Positions 2,996 through 49,683 of a stretch of DNA of 61,092 nt are shown here, piece by piece. Position 1 is the stretch's first letter. The number at the start of each line of letters is the position of its first letter. The stretch is from positions 1 through 61,092 of the forward strand of contig NZ_JACHVB010000032.1 of the NCBI RefSeq assembly GCF_014230085.1, in the 5' to 3' direction. The notes below the pieces were generated by a model. It was not told the origin of the DNA. It ran no database searches and was given only the letters and a program-made list of their open reading frames with translations. Made by a program: the position numbers and the translations under genes. The DNA is from Ruficoccus amylovorans (GTDB taxonomy: Bacteria > Verrucomicrobiota > Verrucomicrobiia > Opitutales > Cerasicoccaceae).

Positions 2996-3058
2996 TAATC
3001 CCGCTGATTCGTATCCGGTGGATTGCTTCCGGTGGCGGGGGCGTGCATCTTCGCAGCC

Positions 3059-3628
3059 ATGCCAACACAGATCAGCCGGTGCGGGTGGGCCAACCACAGC
3101 GAACTTGAAATCGCCTACCACGACGAGGAGTGGGGAATACCTGTCCACGACGACCTGTACCTGTTCAAGATGCTGATCCTGGAGGGCAAGCAGGCGGGCT
3201 TGAGCTGGTCCACCATCCTCGCCAAACGCGAGACGATGTGCGCCGCTTTTGATAACTTCGACCCGCACGCGCTCATCCGCTACGACGAGCGCAAGATCGA
3301 GGAGCTGTTGAAAAACGACGGCATCATCAAGAGCCGCCAGAAGATTAACGCCGCCATTCATAATGCGGGCGTTTACTTTGAGATCGTGCGCGAATACGGC
3401 TCGCTGGACGCCTTTCTGTGGCGCTACGTCGATCACCAGCCCATCGTCAACGGCTGGGAGCGGCTGGAGCAGATACCGGCCAGCACGCCACTGTCGGAGC
3501 AGATCAGCCGTGACCTGAAGAAGCTCGGCTTCAAGTACGTGGGGCCGACCATTATGTACGCCTTCATGCAGGCGGTGGGGATGGTCAACGACCACCTGAC
3601 CTCGTGCTTCTGCTACCGGCGTGGCTGA
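3059..3628 (+). CDS. tag: DNA-3-methyladenine glycosylase I
   Basis: The 189-residue protein is a full-length Tag glycosylase, which removes 3-methyladenine from alkylated DNA in the cytoplasm as the first step of base excision repair. The start MPTQISRCGW fits the family. The zinc-snap ligands line up with E. coli Tag: C8, H21, H179 and C183, with the same spacing as Cys4/His17/His175/Cys179. The active-site glutamate E42 lies in LEGKQAGLSW, also as in E. coli. The gene begins 63 bases after the sugar transferase stop on the same strand, so the two could be co-transcribed, but there is no functional link. An upstream in-frame non-ATG start at 3023 is unlikely because the added residues are not family-like. 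Confidence 0.97.
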   Translation: MPTQISRCGWANHSELEIAYHDEEWGIPVHDDLYLFKMLILEGKQAGLSWSTILAKRETMCAAFDNFDPHALIRYDERKIEELLKNDGIIKSRQKINAAIHNAGVYFEIVREYGSLDAFLWRYVDHQPIVNGWERLEQIPASTPLSEQISRDLKKLGFKYVGPTIMYAFMQAVGMVNDHLTSCFCYRRG

Positions 3629-41186: not shown

Positions 41187-42071
41187 GTGAACCAGAATAA
41201 ACCTATGCTCATGCTCGGCCTTCCGAAGGGTAGCCTCGAAGAGGCGACTCTCAAGCTGTTTGCCAAGGCCGGCTTCAAGATCACCAAGAGCTCACGGTCG
41301 TACCGCCCCGGTTTCGACGATCCGGAGCTCGACGGGCGCTTCATCCGCGCCCAGGAAATGAGCCGTTACGTCGAACACGGCTTCTTTGATTGCGGGCTCA
41401 CCGGGCATGACTGGGTGGTGGAAAACGGTTCCGACGTGGTCGAGGTCTGTGACCTGATCTACAGCCGCGCCTCCAATGTCAAAAGCAAGTGGGTGCTTGT
41501 CGTGCCCGAGGCTTCCTCTGTCCAGACCGTCAAGGACCTGGAGGGCAAGCGTATCGCGACCGAAGTTGTCAGCCTGACCCGCAAGTACCTGGAATCCAAC
41601 GGCGTCACCGCCGACGTGGAGTTCTCCTGGGGCGCGACCGAGGTCAAGGTGCCCGACATGGTGGACGCCATCGTGGACCTGACCGAGACCGGCAACTCCC
41701 TGCGCGCGAACAAGCTGCGCATCGTTGACGTGCTGCTGGAAACCAACACCAAGCTCATCGCCAATAAGCAGGCTTGGGAAGACCCGGCCAAGCGCGCCAA
41801 GATCGAGACCATCGCCCTGCTGCTGACCGCCGCCCTGACCGCCGAGGCCAAGGTCGGCATGAAGCTGAACATCCACAAGGACAAGGTCGCCGAGGTGCTC
41901 AAGGAGCTGCCCGCCCTGCGTAACCCGACCATCTCTCCCCTGACCAACGGCGACTTCGTCGCGCTGGAAGTCATCGTGGACGAGAAGGTCGTGCGCGAGA
42001 TGATCCCGACCCTCAAGGCCCACGGTGCCGAAGGCATCATCGAGTACCCGCTCAACAAAGTCGTCCCCTGA
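41187..42071 (+). CDS. hisG: ATP phosphoribosyltransferase, long form
   Basis: HisG joins ATP and PRPP in the first, feedback-regulated step of histidine synthesis. The 294-residue length shows the long form with a C-terminal histidine-binding domain (about 215-290; [20 protein letters not shown]), which needs no HisZ. The opening [16 protein letters not shown], the PRPP region ([14 protein letters not shown]) and [14 protein letters not shown] are conserved. The start is uncertain: GTG at 41187 has GGAGGG only two bases upstream, and ATGs at 41202 and 41208 also fit family starts. No other his gene is nearby, so the pathway is dispersed. A structured element begins on the base after the stop. 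Confidence 0.95.
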
Positions 42072-42170
42072 GCAGGTTGCACCTGCGGGCAATGAGGGGT
42101 CCGGCTGGACCAGCAATCGCCCCTGCGGAGCCAGAAAGGCTCCTGCCCCGTGGGAGTGTCTGTGGAAGAT
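42072..42170 (+). ncRNA. Candidate structured RNA element directly after the hisG stop codon
   Basis: The base after TGA starts a hairpin GCAGG-TTGCA-CCTGC (42072-42086). Next, GGGCA (42087-42091) can pair with TGCCC (42144-42148), enclosing two hairpins: one from GGGG (42096-42099) to CCCC (42120-42123) with an inner GGTCC/GGACC, and GGAGCC-AGAAA-GGCTCC (42127-42143). A tail CGTGGGAGTG...GAAGAT leads to the terminator at 42182. The rpsA 3' region (46496) has the same plan, with compensatory base changes. Structures were paired by eye, not computed. Confidence 0.55.
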
Positions 42171-42181
42171 AATTTTATCAG

Positions 42182-42209
42182 CGCCCGGTTTTGCGACCGG
42201 GCGTTTTTT
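42182..42209 (+). terminator. Intrinsic terminator after hisG and its RNA element
   Basis: CGCCCGGT-TTTGCG-ACCGGGCG is followed by six T residues. Confidence 0.93.
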
Positions 42210-42258
42210 GTGTCCGGGGGCAGGGAGGGCGTTGCCTTGTGGTTCGGATGTTACTGCG

Positions 42259-42481
42259 AATCTGTGTTATCCGTGGCATCCGTGTTTGACTGCTCGCTAC
42301 GCGAAATCGATGGGTCGGAGGGGTATGTGGAGGGTGAGGAGTTGGCCACCCGGTAAAACTTCGCTTTCGACAAAGTCCGTCGGGTTCTTTTAATGCGTGG
42401 TTTTCGAGAACGGGCGATCAGGGAAGAGCAGGCGGGAGTTTTTATTTCGCGCTCTGTGTCCTCTGTGCCCTCTGTGGTTAA
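42259..42481. repeat. Repeat-bearing gap before aguB, includes a CACAGAG-family copy
   Basis: The gap between the hisG terminator and aguB holds no convincing gene. Near 42259-42292 lies a GTG-periodic stretch (TCTGTGTTATCCGTGGCATC). At 42451-42481 is a single CACAGAG-family copy in reverse orientation (CTCTGTGTCCTCTGTGCCC then TCTGTGGTTAAT), ending 25 bases before the aguB start. Confidence 0.65.
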
Positions 42482-42505
42482 TCTTATCCTACTTCTTTCT
42501 GTCCT

Positions 42506-43363
42506 ATGAACGTCACCCTCGGACTTGTCCAGATGGGCATGGTGTCTGCGCCTGCCGACAACCTCGCCACTGCGGAGCGTCTCATTCGCGAGATAGCCGC
42601 GAAGGGGGCGCAGATCGTCTGCCTGCCGGAGATGTTTACCACCCTGTACTTCTGCCGCACGCAGGACCCGGACGCCTTCGACCTGGCCGAGCCGATCCCC
42701 GGCCCGACCACGGACGCGCTTTGCACGCTGGCAAAGGAGCTGGCCGTGGTCATCGTGGCCCCGTATTTTGAGAAGCGCATGGGCGGCCTCTACCACAACA
42801 CCGCCTCCATCATCGACGCCGACGGCACGCTGCTGGGCAAGTACCGCAAGATGCACATCCCGCAGGACCCCGGCTTTGAGGAGAAGTTTTACTTCACGCC
42901 GGGCGACCTCGGTTTCCGCGTCTGGGATACGCGCTACGGGCGCATCGGGGTGCTTATCTGCTGGGACCAGTGGTTCCCGGAGGGGGCGCGGCTGGCGGCG
43001 CTGGCCGGGGCGCAGATCCTTTTTTACCCGACGGCCATCGGCTGGCTCCCATCGGAAAAAGCCGAGCTTGGCGTGGCCCAGCTCAATGCCTGGCAGACGG
43101 TCCAGTGCGCCCACGCCGTGGCCAACGGCTGCACCGTCGCCGCCGTCAACCGCGTCGGTACCGAGGGCGAGACGGAGTTCTGGGGCCACTCCTTTGTCGC
43201 CGACACCTACGGGCGTCGCGTGGTCGAGGGAGGCGAGGGCGCGGAACTGCTGTTGCACACGGTCGATCTCGACGCGCAAGAGGAGTTCCGGCGCTGGTGG
43301 CCGTTCCTGCGCGACCGCCGCATCGACGCTTACGGCGACATCACCAAACGCGCCATCGACTAG
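42506..43363 (+). CDS. aguB: N-carbamoylputrescine amidase
   Basis: The 285-residue carbon-nitrogen hydrolase has the nitrilase-family triad E42 (LPEMF), K115 (KYRKMHIPQ) and C152 (ICWDQWFPE). The sequence, and the presence of the agmatine deiminase gene 115 bases downstream, identify the substrate as N-carbamoylputrescine, which is hydrolysed to putrescine, CO2 and ammonia. The length is that of the AguB family; MNVTLGLVQMGMV is the natural start. The two genes together turn agmatine into putrescine without ornithine. Each is preceded by a CACAGAG-family repeat rather than a recognisable promoter, and no agmatine-responsive regulator is adjacent. Confidence 0.95.
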   Translation: MNVTLGLVQMGMVSAPADNLATAERLIREIAAKGAQIVCLPEMFTTLYFCRTQDPDAFDLAEPIPGPTTDALCTLAKELAVVIVAPYFEKRMGGLYHNTASIIDADGTLLGKYRKMHIPQDPGFEEKFYFTPGDLGFRVWDTRYGRIGVLICWDQWFPEGARLAALAGAQILFYPTAIGWLPSEKAELGVAQLNAWQTVQCAHAVANGCTVAAVNRVGTEGETEFWGHSFVADTYGRRVVEGGEGAELLLHTVDLDAQEEFRRWWPFLRDRRIDAYGDITKRAID

Positions 43364-43388
43364 ATGAATTTGAGTGACTTTTTGAGGT

Positions 43389-43467
43389 CACAAAGCACAC
43401 AAAGAAGCCACGAAGCGCACGAAGGGACTTTTTTAGGAAAAACTCCGTGTCTCTGTGCCTCTGTGTG
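43389..43467. repeat. CACAGAG-family inverted pair between aguB and aguA
   Basis: A left arm (43389-43425, CACAAAGCACACAAAGAAGC type) faces a right arm (43444-43467, CCGTGTCTCTGTGCCTCTGT). The arms are imperfect, unlike the pair at 10290. The right arm ends 12 bases before the aguA start codon. Confidence 0.7.
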
Positions 43468-43478
43468 AGAATAAAACC

Positions 43479-44510
43479 ATGTCAGCCGAACCGACTTTCA
43501 TCCTCCCCGCCGAGTGGGAACCCCAGGACGCGATCTGGCTCTCGTGGCCGGTCAGCACGCACATCTGGAGCGATTTCCGCGAAGAGATCGAGCCCGCCTT
43601 TGCGCAACTCGCCGCGCAGTTCAGCTACTTTGAGCCGGTCAGGATCAACGCCGATGGTCGCGCCCACGGGAAAATCCGTGAGCACCTCAACCGCGCGCGG
43701 GCCGACCTCTCGGTGATCGAGCTGTACGACCACCCGACGGACGACGTGTGGTGCCGCGACCACGGGGCGGTCTTCGTCCGCGACGCCGCCACGGGCAAGC
43801 TTGCCGCGACCGATTGGCAGTTCAACGCCTGGGGCGGGAAGTTCACGCCTTACGACCGCGACAACACAGCTGCCGCCCGCATGGCCGACGCGCTCGGCAT
43901 ACCCTGCCACCGCTCGGAGCTGATTCTGGAAGGCGGCGCGATCGAATCCAACGGCGCGGGCGTGCTCCTGACCACGGAGGAGGTCTTGCTCAACCCGAAC
44001 CGCAACCCCGAGTGGTCCCGCTCCCAAGTCGAGGCCGAGTTGCGACGGCTCTTTGGGGTGCGGGAAATTTTCTGGCTTCCGCGCGGGCTCGACCACGACG
44101 ACACCGACGGCCACATCGACAACATGACCCGCTTCATCGGCGAGAACGCCATATTGACGGCAGTGGAACCCAAAACAATGCCAGCAGGTGCAACCTGTCA
44201 GCCGTGGCTGGAAGAGGCCCGCCTGCGGCTGAAGGAGCGATTCGAGACCGTGCTGGAACTACCGCTTCCCGAGCCGGACGCGACCTGGCCCGAACCCCGC
44301 CCGGCCAGTTACCTGAACTACGCCCTCGTCAACGACGCCGTCATCGTGCCGAGCTTTGGCCAGCCCAAGAACGACGACTTCGCCCGGGGCCTGCTCGCGG
44401 ACTGCTTCCCAGGCCGCAAGGCCGTCAGCTTCGACTGCCGCCTGTTCCTCGAAGAAGGTGGTGCCGTCCACTGCCTCAGCCAGCACCAGCCGCAAATGCT
44501 CGGCGTTTGA
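43479..44510 (+). CDS. aguA: Agmatine deiminase
   Basis: The ATG at 43479 yields 343 residues of the peptidyl-arginine-deiminase-like superfamily. The opening FILPAEWEPQDAIWLSWP, the substrate-binding DVWCRDHGAVFV and FNAWGGKF, the catalytic histidine and aspartates in DDTDGHIDNMTRF, and the nucleophile C332 in GGAVHCLSQHQP are all present. It deiminates agmatine to N-carbamoylputrescine and ammonia; AguB upstream finishes the conversion to putrescine. An in-frame upstream start at 43455 would begin inside the repeat and was rejected. The region after the stop contains several hairpins up to the rpsA gene. Confidence 0.96.
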   Translation: MSAEPTFILPAEWEPQDAIWLSWPVSTHIWSDFREEIEPAFAQLAAQFSYFEPVRINADGRAHGKIREHLNRARADLSVIELYDHPTDDVWCRDHGAVFVRDAATGKLAATDWQFNAWGGKFTPYDRDNTAAARMADALGIPCHRSELILEGGAIESNGAGVLLTTEEVLLNPNRNPEWSRSQVEAELRRLFGVREIFWLPRGLDHDDTDGHIDNMTRFIGENAILTAVEPKTMPAGATCQPWLEEARLRLKERFETVLELPLPEPDATWPEPRPASYLNYALVNDAVIVPSFGQPKNDDFARGLLADCFPGRKAVSFDCRLFLEEGGAVHCLSQHQPQMLGV

Positions 44511-44575
44511 TCCGAATGAGGGGTGCTGCCCCCGCGCGGCACTGCGTGCCTACTCATTTCGCGACGGGAGGAGTA
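44511..44575 (+). ncRNA. Possible third copy of the post-stop structured element, after aguA
   Basis: Directly after the aguA stop, CGAATGAG (44513-44520) can pair with CTCATTTCG (44553-44561), enclosing GGGG-TGCTG-CCCC and GGCAC-TGC-GTGCC (44538-44550). The ATGAGGGG block and three-way layout resemble the hisG and rpsA elements, and a purine-rich tail GACGGGAGGAG follows, but the leading hairpin is missing and the closing helix differs. Confidence 0.35.
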
Positions 44576-44589
44576 AACAAAGCGACCTC

Positions 44590-44717
44590 GGGGCAGCGGC
44601 CTTTTTGGCCGCGATGGGGCAGAGCCCCATCAGGATGCGGAAGCATCCAGAGTGCAGGGCATGCCCTGCTTTTGGGCTTGTCAGGGTGGGGGAAAAGGTG
44701 CATTTTCTTCCCCCTTT
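44590..44717 (+). terminator. Hairpin cluster and terminators between aguA and rpsA
   Basis: Hairpins in order are CGGCC-TTTTT-GGCCG, GGGGC-AGA-GCCCC, GGATGC/GCATCC, the palindrome GCAGGGCATGCCCTGC with a TTTT run (44654-44673), and GGGGGAA...TTCCCCC with TTT (44688-44717). The last two probably end the aguA transcript. The remaining 115 bases before rpsA should hold its promoter and leader; no boxes are assigned. Confidence 0.6.
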
Positions 44718-44833
44718 CGCCGCTCTAACCAGCGGGCCCCAGTCAAAACCGATTAACCAAACAACCTAACCTTAACCCCGGAGCGCCACCGAATATTTGG
44801 GGGGTGTGCTATCCGGCTAACAGTCAAAGACCT

Positions 44834-46495
<1,662 letters not shown>

Positions 46496-46577
46496 GCGGG
46501 TCGCACCCCGCGGGCTATGAGGGGCTTCCGTCCCTATGCTGCCGACAGGCGGCTACCCCGTGGAGTGCTTCACGAAG
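46496..46577 (+). ncRNA. Candidate structured RNA element directly after the rpsA stop codon
   Basis: The base after TAA starts GCGGG-TCGCA-CCCGC (46496-46511). GGGCTA (46512-46517) can pair with TACCCC (46554-46559, one C-C mismatch), enclosing GGGG-CTTCCG-TCCC (46521-46534) and GCTGCC-GACA-GGCGGC (46538-46553). The tail CGTGGAGTGCTTCACGAAGAT contains a small CGTG/CACG hairpin. Compared with the hisG copy, stems keep pairing although bases differ, while GAGGGG, GTGGAGTG-type and GAAGAT segments are conserved. Structure inferred by eye. Confidence 0.55.
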
Positions 46578-46597
46578 ATTCCGACAGTCATTTACAC

Positions 46598-46628
46598 AAA
46601 GCCCCGGCAATATGCCGGGGCTTTTTTT
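46598..46628 (+). terminator. Intrinsic terminator after rpsA and its RNA element
   Basis: AAAGCCCCGGCA-ATA-TGCCGGGGCTTT is followed by further T residues; a very stable stem. Confidence 0.94.
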
Positions 46629-46758
46629 GTGCCTGCGGCAAAGGGGGCCAGGGATCATCATTCCAGTTGCTTGGATCGGTTATCAGCGGGATTTATTGGG
46701 ATGTGTGGAGTGTGATTGATATTGCGAAAAGAGGGGGTCTCTGGGTACGGTGACTGAC

Positions 46759-49683
46759 ATGCGCCGTCTCCCCCTTGCGTTGCTTCTGTTTGCGGCTGTG
46801 CGTTTGGTCGCCCTCGATACCCTCGACCCGGATTTTGCGCCGGAATTTCGAACGTTTGGAGGAGTTTCTGGACTGGCAGTGCAGCCATCCACGGGGAGCG
46901 TTTACGCACTCGTCTCAGCCGAGTTTATTGGGGAGCAGGAGTTGGCTACGCCCCTTGTCCGGCTTAGCGCGGCGGGGGAGTGGGACGAGAGCTTTCAGTT
47001 GAGCGCCGACGGGGGTATTGGCGGACTAGCGATGCAGCCGGACGGCACGCTGTTGCTATGGGGGGATTTTACGCGGGTCAACGGTCACGAAACCAGGAAC
47101 GTGGCTCGCCTTCTGGCTGACGGAACGGTGGACACCGCGTTTCGGCTGGTGGATGACCTGCTGAGTTCCGACATTGCCTCTTTGGGAATACTGACGGTAG
47201 TCCCGACTTCTTCGGGCGACATCTACGTCGGTCTGTATGCGATGTTAGGCGGTGTGCCTGAAACCGAACAGGACTGGCCGAGGCTTGTGTACCGACTGAC
47301 TCCCAGTGGAAGCGTGGATACCGCTTTCTCCCCCGCGACCAACGCGGTACTGGAAGGGGAAGTCGGCTTTGGCGAATACCGGATCGACAGCATTTGCCCG
47401 GATTCGGCGGGTCGAGTGCTGATCGGCGGGAGCTTTTATGCGGTTAACGGCGTGGTGCAGCCCTGCCTGGCCCGTCTAAATGCGGAGGGGAGTCTGGATG
47501 AGACCTTCGCTCCCGTGCTGGATGGCACCGTGAAGGCCATACTGGAAGCTCCGACCGGTGGTTACTACGTGGGCGGGGAGTTCACAACGGTTGGCGGAGA
47601 GGATCAACTGTACCTTGCGCGGCTGACGGATACGGGGGCACTGAATCCTTCCCTGAGCGTGCCGTTTGCTGACGACTATCATATTTATCCTTATGGCCCA
47701 GGCGTTTCCCTGCTACACCTCGACCATGAGGGGCGTCTGTGTGCGTGGGGAGAATTCTGGGTGGATGAGCAAGCTTCCAGGCTGTTGCGTTGCGCGCGTT
47801 TTGATGTATCCGATCAGTGGGAGACGGAATTTCGCCCTCGTGTGCGATGGTCGCAATGGGTTGCACTCCTGCCGGGGGGAGACCTGCTGACTGGCAGCGT
47901 TGGCAGTAGCATATTGAATGGCGTGCTGATGGCCCCGCTGTGCCGTGTGGAGCCGGAGAGTGGTGCCGTGACCGGCTTCGGTCCGGAATTGCTCAGCAGA
48001 CATTACCCGGAATTCATTCGGCAGCGGCGAGACGGTAGTTTGCTGGTTGGCACGCGGTGGATCAAGAGGGTCGATGGGCGAGATATGTCGGGGTTGATCG
48101 TGCTGAAACCCGACGGCACGCTGGACCTCGCTTTTAATCTGGAATGGAGCCGTCATATTTCGGATGCGCTTGCTTTGCCGGATGGGCGCATTCTCGTGGC
48201 AGGGACGTTTTCCACCATCGGTGATGTGGAGCGGAGGTCTCTTGCGTTGCTGGATGAAAACGGTGAGCTGATCCCGGCTTTCGACTTGGGAAGCGGTCCT
48301 GACATTTCAGCGGATGGCTTGTATCTGCTGCCGGATGGAAAGGTGCTTATCACGGGCAGTTTCAGCCGAATTGATGGCGAAGATTTTGATCGAATGGCGT
48401 TGCTCGATTTGAGTGTGCTGGATGATCCGGAGTGGAGTGGTGACTGGCGAGACGGGCTGGTCGCGATGGACTTTCGCCCGCAATTTGATTATCATCTATG
48501 GATTGATGACGTGGCGGGGATGAGTAATGGCGACATTCTCATCGTATCAAGATCCTCTGTCGAAGTAGGAGGACTTAGCATCAAAGGGCTGGCCCGGATG
48601 CGGCGCGATGGGACGCTTGATCCGGACTTTAATCCTGCGGCGCAGTTTTCCTATTTCTATCCGAATAAAGTCTGTGTCGATTCGGTCCGCGGGTGTATTT
48701 ACGTTGGAGGGCAGATGTCAGCGGTAGAGTCGCGGTATGTCTACCGCCTGTTGGCGGATGGGACGGTCGATCCGACTTTCGTTTGTGATAGCAGGCTTCG
48801 GTCTTTATATGCAATGCGTCTGGACGGAGAAGGCAGGCTGATGTGCATAGGCTCCCATCGTTTGTCTGCGGGAACTTGGTTGTCTAGTACACTGGTTCGT
48901 CTCCAGTCGGATGGTTCGCTCGATCCGGGGTTTGACCTTGGAGGCGAAGACCTGGGCTACTACAATCTCGACCTCCTTCTCCAGCCGCCGGATACGCTCT
49001 ATCTGATCGGCTCGTTTGCTAGCCTTCAGGGCCAGCCGAGGAGCGGGCTGGCGAAAATCAACCTGACTGATCCGATCCGGTCGCTGGCGCAGGTGATGCC
49101 GATGGCCGCGAAGGAAGGCGAGCCAGCGACGCTGCGCTTGAGGCAGACCGCTCCCGGTGAGAGCTATGCCTGGTACTATGACGGTGAGCGTATCGAAAAT
49201 TCCGATACGGCGGAGTTCACGCTGGCGGGATTGGACTTTATGGATGCGGGCAAATTCTCCGTGCGCATCACCAACGCGGCCGGAACCACCACCTCGCAAG
49301 CCGCGCTGGACATAACAGAGTACACCCTGCGCGAGTGGATGAATGCCTATGCTCTCGGTGGAGCGGTTTCGCCGGATGAAGATTCTGACGGTGACGGTTA
49401 CTCCAACCGGGCCGAGTACCTGGCCCGAACCGATCCGACCGACCCGGTGCTACGGCCCGGCACGCGACTGGAGGCGGTGGTTGGCGGGAAGGCGATCAAG
49501 TGGCCGGTCATCCCCGGACGCGAGTACCTGGTGGAGACGTCCGTTGATTTGAAAAGCTGGGGCTCCGCAGCGGACGCGGCGTTAGCGGGGGAAGGACAGT
49601 TTGTGCTTCCCGATTCGACGGAGGACGCTACGCGTTTCTGGCGGGTGCGTATCAGCAAAACGGATACAGTCTCCACGGACTGA
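46759..49683 (+). CDS. Secreted delta-60-repeat protein with Ig-like and calcium-binding C-terminus
   Basis: The ATG at 46759 gives a 974-residue protein with a signal peptide (MRRLPLALLLFAAVRLVALD). The body is a long array of delta-60 (TIGR02608-type) repeats, each with a phrase like RLNAEGSLDETFAP, VARLLADGTVDTAF or ALLDENGELIPAF plus an aromatic GDFT/GEFT turn, likely forming a beta-propeller. Near residue 800 an Ig-like domain follows (SYAWYYDGERIENSDTAEFT), then an acidic thrombospondin-3-like loop (DEDSDGDGYSNRAEYLARTD) and a terminal beta domain (GREYLVETSVDLKSWG). These are common in Verrucomicrobiota surface proteins. A GTG nine bases upstream is an alternative start. Function: probably extracellular binding or adhesion. 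Confidence 0.9.
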   Translation: MRRLPLALLLFAAVRLVALDTLDPDFAPEFRTFGGVSGLAVQPSTGSVYALVSAEFIGEQELATPLVRLSAAGEWDESFQLSADGGIGGLAMQPDGTLLLWGDFTRVNGHETRNVARLLADGTVDTAFRLVDDLLSSDIASLGILTVVPTSSGDIYVGLYAMLGGVPETEQDWPRLVYRLTPSGSVDTAFSPATNAVLEGEVGFGEYRIDSICPDSAGRVLIGGSFYAVNGVVQPCLARLNAEGSLDETFAPVLDGTVKAILEAPTGGYYVGGEFTTVGGEDQLYLARLTDTGALNPSLSVPFADDYHIYPYGPGVSLLHLDHEGRLCAWGEFWVDEQASRLLRCARFDVSDQWETEFRPRVRWSQWVALLPGGDLLTGSVGSSILNGVLMAPLCRVEPESGAVTGFGPELLSRHYPEFIRQRRDGSLLVGTRWIKRVDGRDMSGLIVLKPDGTLDLAFNLEWSRHISDALALPDGRILVAGTFSTIGDVERRSLALLDENGELIPAFDLGSGPDISADGLYLLPDGKVLITGSFSRIDGEDFDRMALLDLSVLDDPEWSGDWRDGLVAMDFRPQFDYHLWIDDVAGMSNGDILIVSRSSVEVGGLSIKGLARMRRDGTLDPDFNPAAQFSYFYPNKVCVDSVRGCIYVGGQMSAVESRYVYRLLADGTVDPTFVCDSRLRSLYAMRLDGEGRLMCIGSHRLSAGTWLSSTLVRLQSDGSLDPGFDLGGEDLGYYNLDLLLQPPDTLYLIGSFASLQGQPRSGLAKINLTDPIRSLAQVMPMAAKEGEPATLRLRQTAPGESYAWYYDGERIENSDTAEFTLAGLDFMDAGKFSVRITNAAGTTTSQAALDITEYTLREWMNAYALGGAVSPDEDSDGDGYSNRAEYLARTDPTDPVLRPGTRLEAVVGGKAIKWPVIPGREYLVETSVDLKSWGSAADAALAGEGQFVLPDSTEDATRFWRVRISKTDTVSTD

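What the first reader, a model, noticed from the sequence alone, without database searches (positions are those of the whole stretch)
42072..42209. Structured RNA-like element begins on the first base after the hisG stop codon and shares its fold with one after rpsA
Seen: after hisG (TGA, 42069-42071) and after rpsA (TAA, 46493-46495), the next base opens a 5-bp hairpin with loops TTGCA and TCGCA. Both then allow a closing helix (GGGCA/TGCCC; GGGCTA/TACCCC with one C-C mismatch), a GGGG hairpin after a common TGAGGGG, a 6-bp hairpin (GGAGCC/GGCTCC; GCTGCC/GGCGGC) with no spacer to the closing helix, and a tail GTGG(G)AGTG...GAAGAT before a strong terminator. Stem bases differ in paired ways (A-T versus G-C; C-G versus T-A), which suggests selection for structure. 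Inference: a family of 3'-UTR RNAs, perhaps sRNAs released from mRNA ends or transcript stabilisers, in two unrelated housekeeping genes. I know no named family with this layout, but cannot search.
Basis: partly seen in the sequence, partly recalled or inferred. Interest (0 to 1): 0.85.

Follow-up and report, generated by a model that had tools for sequence, protein, structure and literature searches.

The report
Repeat hairpins anchored at gene ends
The hairpin element after hisG and rpsA is not a gene-specific regulatory RNA but two of about eighty copies of a mosaic, REP-like palindromic DNA repeat in this bacterium, unusual because many copies begin exactly at the end of a stop codon or of a tRNA.

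Summary
The two structures are real, and a covariance model trained on five other copies finds both (5e-12, 1e-9) plus a third in the window. They belong to a mosaic, REP/BIME-like palindromic repeat: 82 matches in the resident genome (a lower bound) and 15 to 61 in each of the three other genomes of the genus; of 15 genomes outside the genus one has any (4). No Rfam match.

What stands out is position. In 27 of 60 arrays near a same-strand gene end (resident genome), and 23 of 45 sampled in relatives, the first hairpin starts within -2..+1 nt of the stop codon; at other gene ends this occurs in 2 of 268, one of them itself a repeat. Of seven arrays recognised in 111 tRNA trailers, six start at the CCA. 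At orthologous genes the stop is kept while the first module differs between species (8 of 12 clear cases).

Kind: known (REP). Variant: exact anchoring to gene 3' boundaries with module turnover. A regulatory-RNA role is untested. How copies are placed is unexplained: no Y1 transposase in three of four carriers, no reverse transcriptase in one, no shared motif before non-anchored copies.

The parts
42072..42149 (+). repeat copy 1, directly after the hisG stop: H1 42072-42086, H2 stem 42096-42099/42120-42123, H3 42127-42132/42138-42143, end TGCCCC 42144-42149
   Evidence: sequence; R1 hit 64 bits, model trained without it
42100..42118 (+). TCCGGCTGGACCAGCAATC inside the H2 loop, the reverse complement of the tail module GATTGCTGGTCCAGCCGGA that follows CTACCCC in some other copies
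   Evidence: sequence; tails listed
42182..42209 (+). hisG terminator-like hairpin and T run, native 3' UTR, not part of the repeat
   Evidence: a similar terminator stem follows different elements in JB024 and G001
46496..46559 (+). repeat copy 2, directly after the rpsA stop
   Evidence: R1 hit 53 bits
46598..46628 (+). rpsA terminator-like hairpin and T run, not part of the repeat
44493..44555 (+). fourth array, module CAAATGC-TCG-GCGTTTG..TGAGGGG.., which encodes the last residues (QMLGV) and the stop (TGA 44508-44510) of the PAD_porph gene
   Evidence: only a fragment scores with R1 (44515-44532, 11 bits), so it rests on module letters; gene label

Best explanation
A genus-specific, mosaic, REP/BIME-like family of dispersed palindromic repeats. 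Units of three hairpins (an exchangeable first hairpin, a GGGG/CCCC hairpin after TGA(T)GGGG, and a third hairpin ending CTACCCC) have multiplied as DNA. Shown: copy number, modular make-up, covarying stems, a sharp 5' boundary, anchoring in sense orientation, and a start at the gene's 3' boundary (stop codon or tRNA CCA) in about half of the arrays near a gene end, with different modules at the same site in related species. Inferred: copies are mobilised in trans by an enzyme not identified here, new copies are joined by their H1 end to gene 3' boundaries, and transcribed copies are at most mild 3'-UTR hairpins, close to neutral for hisG and rpsA. The joining step is unexplained.
For: 82 matches at E<=0.0013 in the resident genome (150 of 1460 candidates scored, so a lower bound). 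All four genomes of the genus searched carry it (75, 31, 61, 15 at E<=1e-4), the sister-genus genome G005 has 4, and 14 others have none. Pairwise identity jumps at the array start from about 0.25 in the flank. Array starts at -2..+1 of a stop: 27 of 60 (resident), 23 of 45 (relatives); gene ends away from R1 copies: 2 of 268. tRNA trailers: 3 of 42 resident carry an array at the CCA, 3 of 15 in G002 likewise. The native stop is kept with and without the element at most orthologues read. Copies also lie in frame inside genes and after T runs, as described for REPs of other bacteria as regards genes (PMC3733652, section 15).
Against: No Y1/RAYT transposase (PF01797) in G000, G001 or G003, and in the two of three G002 contigs with such a match that I read there is no R1 match (L275, L276). 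In G001 44 tRNA trailers were read and none carries an array; nor do 10 in G003. One array near a tRNA, a degenerate one after tRNA-Arg in L370, lies about 40 nt away, not at the CCA. Exact anchoring is not what plain neutral insertion in 3' UTRs predicts. First hairpins of type M2, sampled by a 14-mer, are less anchored: 4 of 23 at -1..0, 5 with the stop inside the element.
Confidence: 0.85

Rival explanations
1. Functional 3'-UTR element under selection: a hairpin at the stop codon tunes ribosome release, blocks exonucleases or yields an sRNA; any module will do, so sequences turn over while position is kept.
For: Sense orientation and position kept while modules change; compensatory stem changes; REPs within 15 nt of a stop reduce translation in E. 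coli (passages of PMC12306157, citing earlier work).
Against: Few genes carry it (81 arrays in a 4.5-Mb genome; perhaps 2% of genes, my estimate). 16 of 30 orthologous ends read are empty and 2 more hold only remnants. R1 finds nothing in the 78 other hisG loci, Cerasicoccus included. Copies also sit inside genes, after T runs and at tRNA ends. Nothing in a stalling model demands 0 nt rather than 1-15.
Confidence: 0.2
2. Ordinary REP family moved by a RAYT-type single-strand transposase, since lost in most carriers; nearness to stop codons follows from tolerated insertion sites and a tag-like TAG target.
For: The complementary strand of many copies reads GGGTAG-hairpin-GTAG-hairpin, like GTAG-tagged REPs, which often provide the TAG stop of flanking ORFs (PMC3733652, section 15); first modules other than M1 sit at TAG stops in 19 of 21 anchored cases against 216 of 656 genes.
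Against: Of 55 non-anchored array starts of types M1 to M4 none is directly preceded by TAG and one by TAA; type M1 uses all three stops (14 TAG, 8 TAA, 7 TGA); no PF01797 in three of four carriers; tRNA CCA ends are no TAG site.
Confidence: 0.3
3. RNA-level joining: the 5' end of element RNA is copied and switched, or ligated, onto free 3' ends of other RNAs (mature tRNA CCA; mRNA cut at the stop codon in the ribosomal A site), and the chimaeric cDNA replaces the locus.
For: Would explain sense-only anchoring, exact joints at both tRNA CCA and stop codons, and lack of a DNA target motif. A-site cleavage at UAG between nucleotides 2 and 3 is known for RelE (passages of PMC2680264).
Against: G001, with 31 copies, has no RVT_1 match; the resident genome's two RVT_1 matches are neighbouring fragments, one with a stop inside. 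A second crossover downstream of the gene would be needed. Type M3 starts with C both after TAG and after CCA, so a simple 'TA plus G of the element' joint does not hold for it.
Confidence: 0.07

Closest known systems
REP / BIME (repetitive extragenic palindromes, GTAG super-family, incl. Opitutus terrae GTAG-17/19/20; PMC3733652)
   Same: short GC-rich palindromes, dozens to hundreds of copies, arrays, mostly intergenic near gene 3' ends, also in frame inside genes, can supply stop codons, known in Verrucomicrobiota
   Different: fixed three-hairpin order with exchangeable first hairpin; first hairpin joined exactly to stop codons and tRNA CCA ends, in sense only; no RAYT found in three of four carriers; consensus not compared with the published GTAG-17/19/20 figures, which are not held
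REPs within 15 nt of the stop that stall ribosomes in E. coli (passages of PMC12306157; original paper not read)
   Same: hairpin just downstream of the stop
   Different: here the distance is 0 in the main class, and no effect on translation has been measured
Rickettsia palindromic elements (RPE) and other intragenic REPs (PMC3733652, section 15)
   Same: in-frame copies inside proteins
   Different: here a minority; main class is at gene ends
Intrinsic terminators
   Same: GC-rich hairpins after the stop
   Different: no T run after the element in the window copies; separate terminators follow after hisG and rpsA

Membership tests
REP/BIME repeats | short palindromic units in dozens to hundreds of dispersed copies | tested here: met
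   82 matches; stems
REP/BIME repeats | mosaic arrays of units and inter-unit segments | tested here: met
   module combinations
REP/BIME repeats | mostly extragenic, near gene 3' ends | tested here: met
   same-strand gene end within 200 nt for 60 of 81 resident arrays and 45 of 60 in relatives; a few intragenic
GTAG-tagged REPs | unpaired GTAG at one end of the hairpin | tested here: inconclusive
   complement of CTACCCC/CCCCTACG gives GTAG beside H3 and H2 in many copies, but its last G can pair and other copies read CTGCCCC (by eye)
RAYT-mobilised REP/REPIN | RAYT (PF01797) in carrier genomes, flanked by the repeat | tested here: not met
   0 in G000, G001, G003; 4 matches in G002, 5 in G005; L275 and L276, two of the three G002 contigs with a match, give no R1 hit; G005 RAYT loci not read
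REPIN | two REPs in inverted orientation as the mobile unit | not tested
   no systematic test
Rfam RNA families | match at the gathering score | tested here: not met
   0 in the window, 0 in 20 loci
Intrinsic terminator | hairpin followed by a T run | tested here: not met
   window copies end CCCCG without T run; terminators lie downstream
3'-UTR-derived sRNA | discrete transcript released from the mRNA | not testable with these tools
   needs RNA-seq or Northern
Integron attC | R/L core sites with GTTRRRY and an IntI integrase (recalled) | not tested
   considered only because attC sites also follow stop codons (recalled)

The most novel reading that the evidence does not exclude
A class of mobile palindromic repeats whose copies are joined by their 5' end to the 3' ends of genes as defined by mature RNAs (tRNA CCA, mRNA cut at the stop codon), giving 'sockets' at fixed genes into which different hairpin modules are plugged again and again in related species; the joining would be RNA-guided rather than DNA-target-guided.
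Probability: 0.07. Interest if true: 0.85.

Novelty: new variant of a known kind. Interest (0 to 1): 0.5.

Why it matters
REPs are known to lie near stop codons; here many sit at the exact boundary, also at tRNA ends, with empty and differently occupied orthologous sites in close relatives. That makes the open question of how REP-like repeats choose their sites directly testable: any mobilisation model must explain a joint at the last base of a stop codon and of a CCA without a shared DNA motif. It also warns that a covarying hairpin at a stop codon need not be a riboregulator.

Tried and rejected
Rfam at gathering score in the window and in 20 loci: nothing; with E up to 5 over 41900-46900 only sub-threshold matches, many over the terminators, best Leu_leader 29.9 bits against a gathering score of 50. 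Gene-specific hisG or rpsA regulator: rejected, since R1 finds nothing in 78 further hisG loci (3' ends listed) and the unit follows many unrelated genes. Simple TAG target: rejected as sole cause, because non-anchored copies lack TAG, though TAG is enriched for first modules other than M1. Resident RAYT: none. Reverse transcriptase: none in G001 by PF00078. General tendency of hairpins to start at stops: not seen in the genus, although Opitutae outgroups show a small excess (9 of 192), unexplained. 'TA plus G of the element' as the joint: fits some M2 and M4 copies but not M3. Pattern GCAGGGCRYRGCCCTGC was my mistake for the 16-mer searched.

Limits: genes were called by a home-made hexamer caller; array starts by a perfect-stem rule; module types, and occupied or empty, were judged by regular expression or by eye. 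In relatives I read 61 of the 64 R1 matches (I dropped the two of L142 and the one of L143), from 20 regions of G001, 18 of G002, 12 of G003 and 3 of G005, chosen from the listed best matches, not all copies. Of the 44 resident tRNA hits one was not fetched and one (L382) was not called by ARAGORN. Five of the 15 G002 tRNA trailers were chosen by me (tRNA-Ser and tRNA-Gln), one of them beside a known R1 hit. In two of the six tRNA cases (L373, L459) the first stem is too short or weak for my stem rule and was recognised by its letters; R1 scores L366 and L456 strongly, L458, L459 and L373 weakly, and L375 not at all. In the relatives' control the orthologue loci L310-L339 were not masked for R1 copies, and five of its eight anchored hairpins come from them.

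Full report
What is there. After hisG (stop 42069-42071) and rpsA (stop 46493-46495) the next base opens a hairpin, followed by TGAGGGG with a GGGG/CCC(C) hairpin and a third hairpin, then separate terminators. Neither matches Rfam. A pattern search of the resident genome (G000, 4.5 Mb, 64 contigs) showed at once that other places carry the same three-hairpin unit.

Family. I aligned five copies from elsewhere in the genome, leaving the window copies out, and built model R1. A fourth array, at 44493-44555, recognised by its letters, supplies the last codons and the stop of the PAD_porph gene. In the whole genome R1 gives 100 matches at E<=1, of which I used the 82 at E<=0.0013; only 150 of 1460 candidates were scored, so this is a lower bound. 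With E<=1e-4 the four genomes of the genus that were searched carry it (75, 31, 61, 15), one sister-genus genome has 4, and 14 further genomes have none. In 78 further hisG loci of named Opitutae and relatives R1 finds nothing at E<=0.01. Stems covary: in 81 distinct rows 168 cells are changed on both sides against 60 in shuffles; relatives alike (97 against 30). H2 and H3 hold in 93 to 99.7% of cells; H1 in 55 and 66%, because several first-hairpin types exist. These alignments were fitted to the model, which leans towards the structure.

Anatomy. The first hairpin is exchangeable: GCGGGTTGCACCCGC (M1), GTGCGTGNCCGCAC (M2), CAAACGCTCGGCGTTTG (M3), GCAGGGCATGCCCTGC (M4), CTCCGGCTGGAGCAGC (M6) and others. 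The second is TGAGGGG..CCCCTACG or TGATGGGG..CCCCATCG; the third is often GNNGCC-AGAAA-GGCNNC, then TACCCC. A tail TGATTGCTGGTCCAGCCGGACC occurs after some copies and inverted inside the H2 loop of others, the hisG copy included. Homology starts sharply at the first hairpin: pairwise identity in the flank is about 0.25 for M1, M2 and M4, apart from the very last base (M2 0.50, M4 0.38); M3, with five rows, is too few to judge.

Position. Using a home-made hexamer gene caller and a stem rule that does not know the gene end, 60 of 81 resident arrays have a same-strand gene end within 200 nt; their starts relative to it are: inside the gene 8, -2..+1 nt 27, 2-12 nt 3, 13-60 nt 18, beyond 60 nt 4. 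In the relatives sampled, 45 of 60 arrays: 8, 23, 5, 3, 6. Gene ends away from R1 copies have a 6-bp hairpin at -2..+1 in 2 of 268 (one of them an M2 element) and, in relatives, 8 of 272, all eight repeat modules, five of them in loci fetched as orthologues of anchored genes. The mirror test, the element's 3' end against the stop of an opposite-strand gene, gives 0 of 22 within 1 nt in the resident genome and 1 of 23 in relatives. M2 hairpins sampled by sequence alone are less anchored: 4 of 23 at -1..0 and 5 with the stop inside the element.

Not only stops. In the resident genome 3 of 42 tRNA trailers read carry an array starting at the CCA, at tRNA-Gln and two tRNA-Ser (in tRNA-Gln the module CCAGGGC..GCCCTGG shares the CCA). 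In G002 3 of 15 do, again tRNA-Ser, tRNA-Ser and tRNA-Gln, each at 0 nt after the CCA (five of the 15 were chosen by me); in G001 0 of 44 and in G003 0 of 10. A scan of all 111 trailers for module letters adds one array elsewhere: a degenerate M1-type copy about 40 nt after tRNA-Arg in L370. So six of seven are at the CCA.

Orthologous sites. For 13 anchored genes I read 30 orthologous ends in G001-G003: 12 carry a clear module at the stop (11 at 0-1 nt, one at 2), 2 carry remnants, 16 are empty. In most rows the last codons and the stop position are the same with and without the element, so the native stop is kept; the two L081 rows are too diverged to say. Among the 12, the first module is of another type than in the resident genome in 8. 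SUI1 (label) is occupied in all four species, with stops TGA, TAA, TAA, TAG; 6-phosphogluconate dehydrogenase has M4, M1, M3 and none. hisG carries M1 in the window and in G001, M2 in MAG JB024, and no complete module in 5_bin.45, where TGA is followed by GCAGGGCTGAATTTT, possibly a remnant.

Stops. Where the first module is not M1, 19 of 21 anchored stops are TAG; M1 has 14 TAG, 8 TAA, 7 TGA; all called genes 216 of 656 TAG. Of 55 array starts of types M1 to M4 not at a gene end none is directly preceded by TAG and one by TAA. I have no explanation that covers both facts.

What moves it. PF01797 is absent from G000, G001 and G003, present in G002 (4) and G005 (5); no R1 match lies in the two G002 RAYT loci read, of three contigs with such a match. 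RVT_1 is absent from G001 and fragmentary in the resident genome.

Literature. PMC3733652 (abstract, sections 5, 15 and part 1 of 17, and passages read) describes GTAG- and CGTC-tagged REPs, including Opitutus terrae of the Verrucomicrobia, their place near gene 3' ends, in-frame insertions, and that their termini often provide a TAG stop. Passages of PMC12306157 report that REPs within 15 nt of a stop stall ribosomes. Passages of PMC2817692 and PMC1590033 were read too; the first notes REPs immediately after RAYT stop codons, the second stem-loops preferentially within 50 bp after stops. I found no report of REPs anchored exactly at stops and tRNA CCA ends in the listings of searches, which cover only open-licence papers.

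Verdict. A known kind of thing, a REP/BIME-like mosaic repeat, with an unusual and well-supported property, exact anchoring to gene 3' boundaries with module turnover. The regulatory-RNA reading is not excluded but has no direct support. Mechanism of placement: unexplained.

Noticed in passing
L114 about 3001-3064 (-) and L249 3001-3063 (+): Copies lie in frame inside genes (by my reading a HisF-like and a ValS-like protein, labels not tested), adding about 20 residues.
   Followed up: partly
L079/L366, L127/L373, L375 (resident); L456, L458, L459 (G002): Arrays start exactly at the CCA of tRNA-Gln and tRNA-Ser genes, partly with different modules in the two species.
   Followed up: yes
L081, L085, L086, L088: Four arrays share about 50 further bases (GTAAGCGTACTGACCGCCCC... 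and near variants) after the third hairpin, suggesting a larger, recently copied unit.
   Followed up: no
hisG 3' ends of Opitutaceae MAGs, e.g. L160, L161, L166, L167: Other, unrelated hairpins also begin directly after the hisG stop in several Opitutaceae; outgroup gene ends show a small excess at -2..+1 (9 of 192).
   Followed up: partly
G000:C21:179955-180600: Two neighbouring RVT_1 fragments, one with a stop inside: apparently a broken reverse-transcriptase gene in the resident genome.
   Followed up: no
gene ends of the genus: TAG is used about as often as TAA and TGA in this GC-rich genus (216 of 656), and in 16 of 17 anchored stops in front of M2, M3 and M4 modules.
   Followed up: partly
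L077, L118, L088: A few copies start directly or shortly after the T run of a terminator or another T run instead of a stop codon.
   Followed up: no
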